DNA from: Streptantibioticus cattleyicolor NRRL 8057 = DSM 46488
GTDB lineage: Bacteria > Actinomycetota > Actinomycetes > Streptomycetales > Streptomycetaceae
Assembly (NCBI RefSeq): GCF_000240165.1
Contig: NC_017586.1
Span: 1,116,001 to 1,180,000 of the forward strand
Direction: 5' to 3'
DNA length: 64,000 bases
Shown: positions 36,105-43,079 of the stretch, piece after piece
Layout: every line of letters starts with the position of its first letter
Position numbering within the stretch: position 1 is the stretch's first letter
Notes under the pieces: model-generated
What the model was told of the DNA's origin: nothing
What the model saw: the letters and a program-made list of their open reading frames with translations, nothing else
Database searches by the model: none
Translations under genes and position numbers: made by a program

Positions 36105-36123
36105 CGTCAACCAAGGGTTGACG
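36105..36123. promoter_or_regulatory. operator-like palindrome 1 upstream of the ClpC2-like gene
   Basis: A perfect 19-bp dyad CGTCAACC-AAG-GGTTGACG overlapping the -35 hexamer. An almost identical dyad lies 28 bases further on (centre to centre). Likely a repressor site; the adjacent gene encodes its own HTH domain. Confidence 0.75.
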
Positions 36124-36146
36124 CTCCGGTATCGACAACCTACGGT
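36118..36146 (+). promoter_or_regulatory. promoter of the ClpC2-like gene (leaderless)
   Basis: TTGACG (36118-36123), 17-base spacer, TACGGT (36141-36146), an excellent streptomycete housekeeping promoter. The -10 ends six bases before the ATG, so transcription should begin at or next to the A of the start codon, giving a leaderless mRNA. No ribosome-binding site is present. Confidence 0.7.
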
Positions 36147-36151
36147 TGACG
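36133..36151. promoter_or_regulatory. operator-like palindrome 2 upstream of the ClpC2-like gene
   Basis: CGACAACC-TAC-GGTTGACG, the same dyad as at 36105 with one mismatch, covering the -10 element up to the start codon. Occupancy would block RNA polymerase. Confidence 0.72.
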
Positions 36152-36152
36152 C

Positions 36153-36950
36153 ATGTCGAAGAACCCCGTACGGCTCGACGACCTGATCGAGCACGTCCTC
36201 AACCGCAACCCGGAGGCCGACGCCCTCCAGCACCTCTCCGACGCCGTGGAGACCTCCACGCACCTCGGCGAGGTCGCCGACCACCTCATCGGCCACTTCG
36301 TGGACCAGGCCCGCCGCGCCGGCGCCTCCTGGACCGAGATCGGCCAGCACATGGGGGTGAGCAAGCAGGCGGCGCAGAAGCGCTTCGTCCCCAAGGAGAC
36401 CGAGCCTGACGAGCTGCTGGAGGCGGCCCCCGGCTCCAACCTGTTCACCCGGTTCACCGCGCGCGCCCGCACGGCGGTGGAGAACGCCCAGCAGTACGCG
36501 CGCTCGCTCGGCGGCGAACTCATCGGCTCGGAGCACCTGTTGCTCGCGCTGCTGGACGACTCCCAGGGCCTGGCCGTCAAGGCCGTCGAGGCCCTGGGCG
36601 CCCCCGCCGAGCAGGTCCGCGAGGTGGTGCTGACCGCCCTCGGCCAAGGTGAGGCGTCCGACAAGGACCGGCTGCGCTTCAGCCGCGGCGCCAAGAAGAC
36701 GCTCCAGCTCGCGCTGCGCGAGGCGCTCCACCTCGGCCACAACTACATCGGCACCGAGCACCTGCTGCTCGGCCTGCTGCGCAACGAGGGCGAACTCGGC
36801 GCCGAGATCCTCATCGGCCTCGGCGTCACCCGCGAACGCACCGAGGAGTGGGTGGTCGCCCTGCTCGACCAGTACCTGAAGTCCGGTGGCGAGCAGGGCG
36901 GTCAGCGGGAGACGTCCGAGGGCGGCGAGAAGACCGACGGCGGCGACTGA
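36153..36950 (+). CDS. ClpC2-like protein: HTH plus two Clp N-terminal repeats, no ATPase
   Basis: A 265-residue protein. Residues about 58-79 (SWTEIGQHMGVSKQAAQKRF) form a helix-turn-helix; residues about 98-165 and 175-243 are two Clp N-terminal repeats (SEHLLLALLDD; TEHLLLGLLRNEG). There are no AAA+ domains, so it cannot unfold proteins. This is the layout of mycobacterial ClpC2, which binds ClpC1-targeting natural products such as cyclomarin and represses its own gene. Two tandem palindromes over its leaderless promoter fit the same autoregulation. An acidic/Gly tail ends the protein. Ligand and DNA binding are inferred. Confidence 0.82.
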   Translation: MSKNPVRLDDLIEHVLNRNPEADALQHLSDAVETSTHLGEVADHLIGHFVDQARRAGASWTEIGQHMGVSKQAAQKRFVPKETEPDELLEAAPGSNLFTRFTARARTAVENAQQYARSLGGELIGSEHLLLALLDDSQGLAVKAVEALGAPAEQVREVVLTALGQGEASDKDRLRFSRGAKKTLQLALREALHLGHNYIGTEHLLLGLLRNEGELGAEILIGLGVTRERTEEWVVALLDQYLKSGGEQGGQRETSEGGEKTDGGD

Positions 36951-39529: not shown

Positions 39530-39561
39530 CCGATGTGCCCGGACATATCCGGGCACATCGG
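39530..39561. promoter_or_regulatory. 14-bp-arm palindrome upstream of ectA
   Basis: Arms at 39530-39543 (CCGATGTGCCCGGA) and 39548-39561 are perfect complements, with a CATA loop. It lies between an already sufficient terminator and the ect operon, so an operator or structured RNA is more likely than a second terminator. Confidence 0.6.
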
Positions 39562-39664
39562 TACGCAGAACCGCCCGTCGGCCACGATGTTCGCGTGCGC
39601 GTGATAACACAAGCAGGGCTTTCAGGTAACCCCGCGCCCCGATGCATTTCGCTTTTTCGCTGGG

Positions 39665-39670
39665 TAAATT
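39665..39670 (+). promoter_or_regulatory. candidate -10 of the ect operon
   Basis: TAAATT fits TAnnnT and ends eight bases before the ectA ATG. There is no ribosome-binding site, so a leaderless or nearly leaderless transcript is possible. The -35 region (TGCATT at 16 bases) is poor, which would fit control by an alternative sigma factor or activator. Confidence 0.35.
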
Positions 39671-39678
39671 CATCCCGC

Positions 39679-40209
39679 ATGACCGCCACGTCGGAAGAAC
39701 TTCTGCCCGCTGAGCCGGAACGCCGGACGGATTTCCGGTTGGACACGCCTTCGGTGGACGACGGCGCCGCGATCTGGCGGATCGCCCGTGACTCCAAGGC
39801 ACTGGACCTCAACTCGTCGTACAGCTATCTGCTCTGGTGCCGCGACTTCGCCGGCACATCCGTGGTGGCGCGGGACGAAACCGGCACCCCGGTGGGTTTC
39901 GTGACCGGTTACGTACGCCCCGAGCGCCCCGGGACGCTGGTCGTCTGGCAGGTGGCGGTGGACGGCGCGTACCGCGGACGCGGACTCGCCGCGGCGATGC
40001 TCGACGGTCTGGCCGAACGGGCCGCCGAGGCCGGCATCCGTCACCTGGAGACCACCATCACCCCGGACAACGAGGCGTCCAACCGGCTGTTCACCTCCTT
40101 CGGGGCGCGGCACGGCGCCGCGGTCGAGCGCGAAGTGCTCTTCCACGGCGGCCAGTTCCCGGACCCGCACGCGCCCGAGGTGCTGTACCGCATAGGCCCG
40201 CTGACCTGA
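39679..40209 (+). CDS. ectA: L-2,4-diaminobutyrate N-gamma-acetyltransferase
   Basis: A 176-residue GNAT enzyme for the second step of ectoine synthesis. Family features: FRLDTPSVDDGAAIWRIARD, LDLNSSYSYLLWCRDF, the acetyl-CoA loop VDGAYRGRGLAAAML and TTITPDNEASNRLF. Followed by ectB, ectC and ectD in order. The ATG at 39679 has no ribosome site but a candidate -10 just upstream. A 144-base gap with a tandem repeat precedes ectB. Confidence 0.95.
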   Translation: MTATSEELLPAEPERRTDFRLDTPSVDDGAAIWRIARDSKALDLNSSYSYLLWCRDFAGTSVVARDETGTPVGFVTGYVRPERPGTLVVWQVAVDGAYRGRGLAAAMLDGLAERAAEAGIRHLETTITPDNEASNRLFTSFGARHGAAVEREVLFHGGQFPDPHAPEVLYRIGPLT

Positions 40210-40231
40210 CCCGCTGACCGACCCGCTGCCC

Positions 40232-40278
40232 CGACCCCTGGCCGACCCGACCCCTGGCCGACCCGACCCCTGGCCGAC
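40232..40278. repeat. three tandem copies of a 16-bp unit between ectA and ectB
   Basis: The unit CGACCCCTGGCCGACC starts at 40232, 40248 and 40264; the third copy lacks the last base. Copies are otherwise identical, which suggests recent slippage. It lies 23 bases after the ectA stop. Confidence 0.9.
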
Positions 40279-40353
40279 ACCCGGCCGGCGCCTTTCCCTC
40301 GCCGGCCGCGCATTCCCCCCTCTTCCCCTCACATCAGCCCCGAGGAGATCACG

Positions 40354-41622
40354 GTGACCATCACCCCGCCCGAGTTGAGCATCTTCGAGTCGCTGGAGTC
40401 CGAGGTCCGCAGCTACTGCCGTGGCTGGCCCGCGGTGTTCGACCGCGCGCAGGGCAGCCGGCTCTACGACGAGGACGGCCACAGCTACCTGGACTTCTTC
40501 TCCGGTGCGGGCGCCCTCAACTACGGCCACAACAACCCGGTACTCAAACGCGCGTTGCTGGACTATCTGGAACGCGACGGCATCACCCACGGCCTCGACA
40601 TGAGCACCACGGCCAAACGCCGCTTCCTCAGCTCGTTCCAGGAGGTGGTGCTCGCCCCGCGCGGCCTGGACTACAAGGTGATGTTCCCCGGCCCCACCGG
40701 CACCAACGCCGTGGAGGCCGCGCTCAAACTGGCCCGCAAGGTCAAGGGCCGCGAGGCGATCGTCTCGTTCACCAACGCCTTCCACGGCATGTCGCTGGGG
40801 TCGCTGGCGGTCACCGGCAACGCCTTCAAGCGGGCCGGCGCCGGCATCCCGCTGGTGCACGGCACCCCGATGCCGTTCGACCACTACCTGGACGGTCGCG
40901 TCCCGGACTTCCTGTGGTTCGAGCGCCTGCTGGAGGACTCCGGCTCCGGCCTCAACCAGCCCGCCGCGGTCATCGTGGAGACCATCCAGGGCGAGGGCGG
41001 CATCAACGTCGCCCGCCCCGAATGGCTGCGCGGCCTGGCCGAGTTGTGCCGACGGCGCGACATGCTGCTGATCGTCGACGACATCCAGATGGGGTGCGGG
41101 CGCACCGGCCCGTTCTTCTCCTTCGAGGAGGCCGGCATCGTCCCGGACATCGTCACCCTGTCCAAGTCCATCGGCGGCTACGGCATGCCGATGTCGCTGA
41201 CGCTCTTCAAGCCGGAGCTGGACATCTGGGAGCCCGGCGAGCACAACGGCACCTTCCGCGGCAACAACCCGGCGTTCGTCACCGCGACGGCCGCGCTGGA
41301 GGCGTACTGGGCGGACGGCCAGATGGAGAAGCAGACCGTGGCCCGCGGTGAGCAGGTGGAGGCCGCGCTGCGGGAGATCGCCGCCGAGCACCCGCGGTCC
41401 GGCGCCACGTACCGGGGGCGGGGGCTGGTGTGGGGGCTGGAGTTCACCGACCCGGCCCGGGCCGGCGCCGTCTGCCGCCGCGCCTTCGAGCTGGGGCTGC
41501 TGCTGGAGACCTCCGGGCCGGAGAGCGAGGTCGTCAAGCTGCTGCCGGCCCTGACCGTCTCCCCCGACGAACTCGACGAGGGGCTGCGCACCCTGGCCCG
41601 CGCGGTCCGCGACACCGCCTGA
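40354..41622 (+). CDS. ectB: diaminobutyrate-2-oxoglutarate transaminase
   Basis: A 422-residue class III aminotransferase that converts aspartate semialdehyde to L-2,4-diaminobutyrate with glutamate. Motifs: [53 protein letters not shown] and the PLP-Lys [12 protein letters not shown]. The GTG at 40354 is preceded by CGAGGAGATCACG. Length matches EctB. Confidence 0.96.
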
Positions 41623-41702
41623 CCGCACCCCCGCGCCCGTCCGCGCGTCCGGCGCCGACCGGGCGCCGAGAACCCCGTACCGACAGAAAGGCACACGTCA
41701 CC

Positions 41703-42107
41703 GTGATCGTCCGCTCGTTCAAGGACATCGAAGGCACCGACCGGCATGTGAAGGCCGCGTCGGGCACCTGGGAGAGCAAGCGCATCGTCCTCGCCCGGGA
41801 GGGCGTCGGCTTCTCGCTGCACGAGACGGTCCTCTACGCGGGCACCGAGACGTCGATGTGGTACGCCAACCACATCGAGGCGGTGCTGTGCGTCGAGGGC
41901 GAGGCGGAGCTGACCAACGACGAGACGGGTGAGAAGCACTGGATCACCCCGGGCACGATGTATCTGCTGGACGGCCACGAGAAGCACACGCTGCGTCCGA
42001 AGACCGACTTCCGCTGCGTGTGCGTCTTCAACCCGCCGGTCACCGGCCGTGAGGACCACGACGAGAACGGGGTCTACCCGCTGCTCACCGAGCCCGCCGG
42101 CGCCTGA
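41703..42107 (+). CDS. ectC: ectoine synthase
   Basis: A 134-residue cupin that cyclises N-gamma-acetyl-diaminobutyrate to ectoine. It begins with the canonical VIVRSF and has [36 protein letters not shown] and [20 protein letters not shown], including the Glu and two His that hold iron. The GTG at 41703 is the only start that fits; AAAGG lies 11 bases upstream. Confidence 0.96.
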
Positions 42108-42116
42108 GCCGGGTCC

Positions 42117-42157
42117 GCTCCCCCCTCTCCCTCGTCCCTCCCTCCTCCCTCCTCCCG
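42117..42157 (+). other. polypyrimidine tract between ectC and ectD
   Basis: A 41-base stretch of almost only C and T (one G) on the coding strand, ending before the AAAGGAG ribosome site of ectD. Its purpose is unknown; such unpaired tracts can act as RNA-processing or Rho-loading sites. Confidence 0.6.
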
Positions 42158-42179
42158 ACGACGCCCTGAAAGGAGCCGT

Positions 42180-43079
42180 ATGACCACCGCCCCCGAGCGC
42201 ATCGCCGACGTCTACCCGACCCGTGGCGCCACCGAGGTGGCCGTTCCGCGCCAGGACCCGGTGGTGTGGTCCGGGCCCGACGCCCCCGGGCCGATCCGCC
42301 CGGCCGAGCTGAGCGGCTTCGAACGCGACGGGTTCCTCACCGTCGACCAGCTCATCACCCCCGAGGAAGTCGTCCGCTACCGCGCCGAGTTGGACCGGCT
42401 GATCGCCGATCCGGCGGTCCGGGCCGACGAACGGTCGATCGTCGAGCCGAAGTCGCAGGACGTACGGTCCGTCTTCGAGGTCCACCGGATCAGCGAGGTC
42501 TTCGCCGAACTCGTCCGCGACCCGCGGGTGCTGGACCGCGCCCGGCAGATCCTCGGCTCGGACGTCTACGTCCACCAGAGCCGGGTCAACGTCAAGCCCG
42601 GCTTCGGGGCCAGCGGCTTCTACTGGCACTCCGACTTCGAGACCTGGCACGCCGAGGACGGGCTGCCGCGGATGCGTACCGTCTCGGTCTCCATCGCGCT
42701 GACCGACAACCACCCGACCAACGGCGGCTTGATGATCATGCCGGGGTCGCACCGGACGTTCATCGGGTGCGCCGGTGAGACCCCGCTGGACAACTACAAG
42801 CAGTCGCTGAAGATGCAGGAGGCGGGGACCCCCTCGCACCAGGCGCTGAGCGAACTCGCCGAAGCCCACGGCATCAAGCTCTTCACCGGCCCGGCCGGCT
42901 CCGCCACCTGGTTCGACTGCAACTGCATGCACGGCTCCGGGGACAACATCACCCCGTTCCCGCGCAGCAACGTCTTCATCGTCTTCAACAGCGTGGAGAA
43001 CACCGCCGTCGAGCCGTACGCCGCCCCGGCGCGCCGTCCGGAGTTCATCGGCGCGCGGGACTTCACCCCGGTGCGCTGA
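42180..43079 (+). CDS. ectD: ectoine 5-hydroxylase
   Basis: A 299-residue 2-oxoglutarate/Fe(II) dioxygenase that makes 5-hydroxyectoine. The signature FYWHSDFETWHAEDGLPRMR contains the iron His-x-Asp; GGLMIMPGSHRTFI and the distal NCMHGSGDNITPFPRSN (third iron His and oxoglutarate Arg) follow. The ATG has AAAGGAG five bases upstream. Its presence indicates hydroxyectoine production, common in streptomycetes. Confidence 0.96.
   Translation: MTTAPERIADVYPTRGATEVAVPRQDPVVWSGPDAPGPIRPAELSGFERDGFLTVDQLITPEEVVRYRAELDRLIADPAVRADERSIVEPKSQDVRSVFEVHRISEVFAELVRDPRVLDRARQILGSDVYVHQSRVNVKPGFGASGFYWHSDFETWHAEDGLPRMRTVSVSIALTDNHPTNGGLMIMPGSHRTFIGCAGETPLDNYKQSLKMQEAGTPSHQALSELAEAHGIKLFTGPAGSATWFDCNCMHGSGDNITPFPRSNVFIVFNSVENTAVEPYAAPARRPEFIGARDFTPVR

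What the first reader, a model, noticed from the sequence alone, without database searches (positions are those of the whole stretch)
36105..36950. ClpC2-like decoy/repressor behind a leaderless promoter with two tandem operators
The 265-residue product has an HTH plus two Clp N-terminal repeats and no ATPase, the architecture of mycobacterial ClpC2, which binds ClpC1-poisoning natural products and represses its own gene. Here two 19-bp CGTCAACC-N3-GGTTGACG palindromes, 28 bases centre to centre, cover the -35 and -10 of an excellent TTGACG-N17-TACGGT promoter whose -10 ends six bases before the ATG. The whole unit looks like a compact sensor: a Clp-binding toxin binds the repeats, repression is lifted and more decoy is made. 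In an antibiotic-producing genus this may be self-defence.
Basis: partly seen in the sequence, partly recalled or inferred. Interest (0 to 1): 0.75.

Follow-up and report, generated by a model that had tools for sequence, protein, structure and literature searches.

The report
ClpC2 autorepressor with tandem operators
This gene is the Streptomyces-family version of a known bacterial 'sponge' protein that soaks up protease-poisoning antibiotics and switches off its own gene, and comparing about 170 relatives indicates which part of the protein reads the DNA: not the part the published model names, but a small helix missing from the published crystal structure.

Summary
36153-36950 encodes a 265-aa ClpC2 ortholog, and two operators 28 bp apart cover the -35 and -10 of a leaderless promoter. 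So this is a new member of a known kind. Producer self-defence is not supported: 125 of 150 family genomes carry the gene, and no toxin cluster lies beside it.

Beyond that, the comparison bears on which domain reads DNA. Taylor et al. place DNA binding in the Clp-like C-terminal domain; their N-terminal crystal fragment ends one residue before the helix-turn-helix recognition helix. In 172 genes, recognition-helix residue 71 (K or R) tracks the operator's outermost base (C or T) far better than any other of 202 tested residues (likelihood ratio 85.6; next 20.7). Residue 76 (K or Q) tracks the innermost base. At least five relatives with the same helix but no Clp domain carry the same tandem operators at their start codons. 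The N-terminal HTH is therefore very likely the DNA reader and the Clp domain the sensor. A K71R swap with T/A operators would test this directly.

The parts
36105..36123 (.). Operator O1, CGTCAACCAAGGGTTGACG (7-n5-7 palindrome); its right half carries the -35
   Evidence: 0 mismatches; identical to the published clpC2 operator CGTCAAC-n5-GTTGACG; the tandem pair is found in all 172 relatives analysed
36133..36151 (.). Operator O2, CGACAACCTACGGTTGACG (one mismatch); carries the -10; ends 1 nt before the ATG
   Evidence: spacing 28 bp here, 28 or 29 bp in all relatives
36118..36123 (+). -35 hexamer TTGACG
   Evidence: sequence; TTGAC conserved in 170 of 172
36141..36146 (+). -10 hexamer TACGGT (TANNNT), 17-nt spacer, leaderless start
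   Evidence: sequence; TA at this place in 168 of 172 O2 sites against 4 of 172 O1 sites
36153..36950 (+). clpC2, 265 aa
36153..36392 (+). N-terminal dimerisation/HTH domain (residues 1-80); D43 and R54 equal the Mtb dimer salt bridge D46-R57
   Evidence: phmmer to 8ADA E 2.6e-21; AlphaFold2 helices 8-18, 24-35, 40-55, 60-67, 71-78; Z 11.7 to 8ADA_B
36360..36386 (+). HTH recognition helix S70-K71-Q72-A-A-Q-K76-R-F78; absent from 8ADA, which ends at the residue equal to V69
   Evidence: covariation
36363..36365 (+). codon of K71, covaries with operator base 1
   Evidence: MI 0.733, next 0.20; LR 85.6, next 20.7 among 202 columns
36378..36380 (+). codon of K76, covaries with operator base 7
   Evidence: (K76: C 604 of 612; Q76: C 23 of 76)
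36441..36881 (+). double Clp_N domain (residues 97-243), ligand-sensing/sponge domain; F98 and F176 equal Mtb F96 and F172 of the cyclomarin pocket
   Evidence: Pfam PF02861 E 1.1e-26, two stretches; phmmer to Mtb ClpC1 NTD structure 3WDC E 5e-35

Best explanation
The unit is clpC2: a compact, self-contained sensor-repressor-sponge. A dimer of the N-terminal domain places two HTH recognition helices (S70-F78) on each 7-n5-7 palindrome. K71 near the helix start helps set the outermost base (C:G) and K76 the innermost base (C7). The two operators sit on the -35 and the -10, 28/29 bp apart because that gives a 17/18-bp promoter spacer, so two bound dimers block RNA polymerase at a leaderless promoter. 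The C-terminal double Clp_N domain, a copy of the ClpC1 substrate-receptor domain, binds Clp-directed peptides or exposed protein segments. That binding weakens operator binding, transcription rises, and the accumulating Clp_N domain soaks up the ligand and spares ClpC1. Shown here: orthology, operator architecture, helix-operator covariation, the same operators at relatives without a Clp domain, and a single target per genome. Shown by others in mycobacteria: autorepression, cyclomarin binding and derepression. Inferred: that this protein behaves likewise, that the HTH (not the Clp domain) is the sequence reader, and that ligand binding acts on it allosterically.
For: N-terminal domain matches Mtb ClpC2 8ADA (E 2.6e-21) and the C-terminal domain the ClpC1 NTD (E 5e-35). 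The operator equals the published one. All 172 distinct relatives have the tandem operators, 28 (110) or 29 (62) bp apart and 1-2 nt before an ATG. Half-site base 1 by residue 71: K has C in 431 of 456, R has T in 181 of 232; this holds at each of the four half-sites, so it is not a promoter effect. Residue 71 ranks first of all columns by mutual information (0.733 against 0.20) and by a tree-based dependence test (LR 85.6 against 20.7 for the next of 202 columns). At 70-80% identity outside the HTH, pairs with different residue 71 differ in base 1 by 0.80, same-residue pairs by 0.09. Residue 71 changes 17-18 times on the best trees; 9 and 13 of these fall on the same branch and in the same direction as the base change, 0 opposite. 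K76 has C at base 7 in 604 of 612 half-sites, Q76 in 23 of 76, with 3 supported independent switches, nearly always concordant and never opposed over random pairings. Relatives without Clp_N (L225, L226, L240 HTH-only; L146, L255 HTH-DUF3887) have tandem 7-n5-7 palindromes 28 bp apart, 1-2 nt before the start (shuffle p about 0.003, the floor, for each; domains of L146, L225, L226 and L240). One tandem site per genome, at the clpC2-like gene itself. HTH columns vary least (0.53 bits against 1.60 for the C-terminal domain).
Against: Taylor et al. report that R185A/R189A in the C-terminal domain lowers DNA binding and raises expression 2-fold, and they assign DNA binding there. The second of these arginines is H193 in the window and varies in the family (R in 131 of 172), and R57A in the N-terminal dimer raises expression more (4.6-fold); both fit an HTH reader with auxiliary contacts from the C-terminal domain. 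RelI, an HTH relative, showed no sign of DNA binding. Many tree branches are weakly supported: only 2-3 residue-71 switches sit on starred branches. Exceptions exist (R71 with C: L183, L227). No experiment was done on this protein.
Confidence: 0.85

Rival explanations
1. ClpC2 autorepressor in which the Clp-like C-terminal domain reads the operator, as published; the N-terminal domain only dimerises.
For: R185A/R189A weakens the gel shift and derepresses 2-fold; positive, conserved surface next to the cyclomarin site (PMC10030653).
Against: Operator bases track recognition-helix residues 71 and 76; column 193 shows little dependence (LR 5.0) and H193 in the window coexists with a standard operator. 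Relatives lacking Clp_N carry the same tandem operators. ClpC1, with a similar charged surface, shows little sequence specificity. The published N-terminal fragment lacked the recognition helix.
Confidence: 0.1
2. Same autorepressor, but the inducing signal in Streptomycetaceae is misfolded protein or heat rather than a toxin; the sponge role is secondary. (Compatible with the best explanation; it differs only in the signal.)
For: clpC2 is also induced by heat in mycobacteria (section heading). The gene is widespread and not tied to a toxin cluster. The pocket position equal to Mtb F172 is Y in 75 and V or I in 21 of 172 relatives, so cyclomarin-type binding need not be general.
Against: The Clp_N pocket phenylalanines F98 and F176 are kept in the window protein, and host ClpC1 has the F2/F80 pocket, so toxin protection is possible.
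Confidence: 0.4
3. Producer self-resistance gene for a ClpC-targeting antibiotic made by this strain.
For: Mechanistic analogy only. A search for the PF11991 prenyltransferase found none in the genome, but that search had an empty control.
Against: 125 of 150 family genomes have the gene; neighbours are an ABC transporter, an amidohydrolase and ectoine-like genes; the host's ClpC1 target is unaltered at F2/F80.
Confidence: 0.04

Closest known systems
ClpC2 of Mycobacterium tuberculosis (Rv2667) and M. smegmatis (Taylor et al. 2023, PMC10030653; PDB 8ADA, 8AD9)
   Same: N-terminal dimer domain, double Clp_N C-terminal domain, tandem CGTCAAC-n5-GTTGACG operators on the -35/-10, leaderless start, cyclomarin-pocket phenylalanines
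   Different: Second C-terminal arginine (Mtb R189) is H193 here; Mtb E181 corresponds to Q185; ligand and regulation untested here; evidence here points to the HTH as the DNA reader
RelI antitoxin of M. tuberculosis (Rv2664; PMC13284704; PDB 9SDC)
   Same: Homologous HTH-bearing N-terminal domain (E 5.6e-5)
   Different: No Clp_N; binds the RelS toxin; authors found no sign of DNA binding or inverted repeats
HTH-only and HTH-DUF3887 relatives (L225, L226, L240; L146, L255)
   Same: Same HTH, tandem 7-n5-7 palindromes 28 bp apart, 1-2 nt before the start codon
   Different: No Clp domain; operators TGTAAAG/TGTCAAG or CGTAAAG instead of CGTCAAC (L240: TGTCATC/CGTCAAT); signal unknown
ClpC1 N-terminal domain (3WDC and others)
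   Same: Double Clp_N fold and drug pocket
   Different: ClpC1 is an ATPase; little specificity for the operator (PMC10030653)

Membership tests
ClpC2 (Rv2667 family) | N-terminal domain homologous to 8ADA with the D46-R57 dimer pair | tested here: met
   E 2.6e-21; D43 and R54 present and invariant in 42 orthologs
ClpC2 (Rv2667 family) | ClpC1-NTD-like double Clp_N and no AAA+ ATPase | tested here: met
   the ORF ends at residue 265
ClpC2 (Rv2667 family) | CGTCAAC-n5-GTTGACG operator 1-2 nt before the ORF, often repeated upstream, over -35/-10, leaderless | tested here: met
   published definition
ClpC2 (Rv2667 family) | Binds cyclomarin through two phenylalanines | tested here: inconclusive
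   F98 and F176 conserved, but Mtb E181 corresponds to Q185; binding itself not testable here
ClpC2 (Rv2667 family) | Represses its own promoter; ligand lifts repression; protects the cell | not testable with these tools
   needs gel shift, reporter and knock-out
RelS-RelI toxin-antitoxin | Adjacent RelS toxin gene | tested here: not met
   by reading the ORFs: the upstream neighbour is an ABC ATPase on the other strand, the downstream neighbour an amidohydrolase

The most novel reading that the evidence does not exclude
The published assignment of ClpC2 DNA recognition to its Clp-like domain is wrong: an N-terminal HTH with a readable code (residue 71 to operator base 1, residue 76 to base 7) defines an actinobacterial family of leaderless, tandem-operator autorepressors whose sensor part is interchangeable (double Clp_N, DUF3887, or none).
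Probability: 0.75. Interest if true: 0.6.

Novelty: new member of a known kind. Interest (0 to 1): 0.5.

Why it matters
ClpC2 is the cell's own buffer against ClpC1-directed tuberculosis drug leads, so how it senses ligand and lets go of DNA matters for drug design. If the HTH reads DNA and the Clp domain only senses, the switch is allosteric, and the HTH can be combined with other sensor domains, as nature appears to have done. The K71R / C-to-T operator code gives a one-mutation test.

Tried and rejected
Genome-wide regulon: sites with up to 3 mismatches are close to the reversed control (89 against 71), and the only other 1-mismatch site (L003) appears to lie inside a coding region. A dedicated single-target repressor fits better. 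Paralogs in the same genome: ClpC1, two ClpB-like proteins and a 260-aa double-Clp_N protein without the HTH; no second ClpC2. Synteny: the amidohydrolase and aminotransferase neighbours are kept only in the 7 closest relatives, so the neighbourhood says little. Q75R with base 3 T-to-A (L125): a single case, and base 3 varies also with Q75, so no claim. Starred-branch sign tests had too few pairs to reach significance; tree-based likelihood ratios and identity-matched pairs were used instead, so the exact number of independent switches is uncertain. Fold matches below 8ADA (ParB, KorB and other DNA-binding domains, Z about 4-5) are too weak to model DNA contacts. HTH relatives without the tandem operators: DUF2812 fusion L228, mid-protein HTH L092/L244, and several others, so the architecture is not universal to every HTH relative. 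L148 (p about 0.08) and L252 (n4 spacer, p about 0.007) are weaker cases and are not counted among the five.

Full report
What is there. The window holds a 265-codon gene at 36153-36950. Two palindromes, 36105-36123 (perfect) and 36133-36151 (one mismatch), lie 28 bp apart and the second ends one base before the ATG. The right half of the first carries TTGACG, the middle of the second TACGGT, 17 bases apart, so the transcript should start at or next to the ATG. By the E. coli consensus the promoter is only moderate and the generic scan does not list it, but across 172 relatives the -10 'TA' is conserved in operator 2 (168 of 172) and not at the same place of operator 1 (4 of 172). The 28/29-bp operator spacing is therefore the 17/18-bp promoter spacing.

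What it is. Residues 97-243 are a double Clp_N domain, closest to the N-terminal domain of ClpC1 (E 5e-35 to the Mtb ClpC1 structure 3WDC). Residues 4-69 match the N-terminal domain of Mtb ClpC2 (8ADA, E 2.6e-21). The dimer salt-bridge residues D46 and R57 of Mtb correspond to D43 and R54 (residue offset 3 in the alignment), invariant among 42 orthologs. The operator is the published clpC2 operator, CGTCAAC-n5-GTTGACG, one to two nucleotides before the ORF, repeated upstream, over -35 and -10, leaderless (PMC10030653). The paper's alignment species do not include Streptomyces, so this is a new member, not a new kind.

How common. 125 of 150 Streptomycetaceae genomes hold the N-terminal domain at E 1e-6 or better. 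Every one of 172 distinct relatives taken has the tandem operators. The tandem pattern occurs once in 101 genomes, twice in 2, and never in the reversed control. The listed places that were checked by position lie next to the clpC2 gene or a clpC2-like paralog (the second sites in G096 and G119 do too). So ClpC2 looks like a dedicated regulator of itself.

Which part reads the DNA. Taylor et al. propose the C-terminal domain, on the basis of R185A/R189A and the charged surface by the cyclomarin site. Their N-terminal crystal fragment was trimmed by proteolysis to residues 4-72. Residue 72 corresponds to V69 of the window protein, and the AlphaFold2 models put the next helix at 71-78; the fragment ends just before it. 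This helix, S-K-Q-A-A-Q-K-R-F, follows W60-G68 as the second helix of an HTH.

Operators and this helix change together. With K71 the outermost base is C in 431 of 456 half-sites; with R71 it is T in 181 of 232. The trend holds at each of the four half-sites, including those outside the promoter elements. Among all alignment columns residue 71 has by far the highest mutual information with that base (0.733, next 0.20). A dependence test on a tree built without the HTH gives a likelihood ratio of 85.6 for residue 71 and at most 20.7 for any other of 202 tested columns; the column of the published R189 gives 5.0. At equal overall identity (70-80%), pairs that differ at residue 71 differ in the base (0.80), pairs that do not, hardly (0.09). 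The best trees need 17-18 changes of residue 71; 9 and 13 of them fall on the same branch as the matching base change and none opposes. Branch support is weak, so the number of independent events is uncertain: starred branches carry only 2-3. Likewise K76 goes with C at the innermost base (604 of 612), and Q76 with T, G or C about equally (27, 26, 23). This includes a 234-aa paralog family (L126-L141), separate cases (L040, L213, L142/L143) and three supported switches, of which 2.9 on average go the expected way and none the opposite way.

A natural domain swap points the same way. HTH-only relatives L225 (95 aa), L226 (93 aa) and L240 (120 aa), and HTH-DUF3887 fusions L146 and L255, lack Clp_N but have tandem 7-n5-7 palindromes 28 bp apart that end 1-2 nt before the start codon, each at the floor of a shuffle test (Pfam of L146, L225, L226, L240; L255 is 80% identical to L146). 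L252 and L148 have n4 versions with weaker statistics. Several more distant HTH relatives lack them.

Working model. HTH dimers on two operators block the promoter. The Clp_N domain senses a Clp-directed ligand and, by an allosteric step that remains to be shown, loosens DNA binding; the C-terminal arginines may add unspecific backbone contacts, which would explain the mild published mutant effect (2-fold, against 4.6-fold for the N-terminal dimer mutant). The protein then accumulates and soaks up the ligand. In this host the ClpC1 pocket residues F2 and F80 are present and the ClpC2 pocket keeps F98 and F176, so protection is plausible. The true inducer in this genus is unknown. Producer self-defence has no support.

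What is shown and what is inferred. Shown by sequence: gene, operators, promoter geometry, orthology, covariation, Clp-less relatives with the same operators, single target. Shown by others in mycobacteria: repression, cyclomarin binding, derepression, protection. Inferred: the same behaviour here, and the HTH as reader. No paper in the searched library reports the HTH of ClpC2 as the operator reader; the RelI paper names an HTH region by homology only. The library omits most subscription papers and preprints, so prior description cannot be excluded.

Noticed in passing
L126-L141 (234-aa proteins, mostly genus code g3): A second, divergent ClpC2-like paralog family with recognition helix KQAAQQRH and its own tandem operators CGTCAAT/C-n5-(A/G/C)TTGACG.
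   Followed up: partly
L146, L255 (HTH-DUF3887), L225, L226, L240 (HTH-only): Small uncharacterised autoregulator candidates with the ClpC2-type HTH and the same tandem operator architecture but no Clp domain; their sensed signal is unknown.
   Followed up: partly
L007/L009 (genome C1:1381991-1382593): A 260-aa double Clp_N protein without HTH and without ATPase in the same genome; possibly another ClpC decoy or adaptor.
   Followed up: no
window 39535-43079: Genes that look like an ectoine/hydroxyectoine cluster (acetyltransferase, aminotransferase, cupin-like synthase, dioxygenase) downstream of clpC2.
   Followed up: no
recognition helix and -35 of R71 orthologs: K71 orthologs mostly have -35 TTGACG (103 of 114) and R71 orthologs TTGACA (49 of 58), so the specificity switch also changes the promoter toward consensus.
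   Followed up: partly
alignment column 176 (Mtb F172 equivalent): The cyclomarin-pocket Phe is Tyr in 75 of 172 and Val or Ile in 21 relatives, which hints at different ligand ranges.
   Followed up: no
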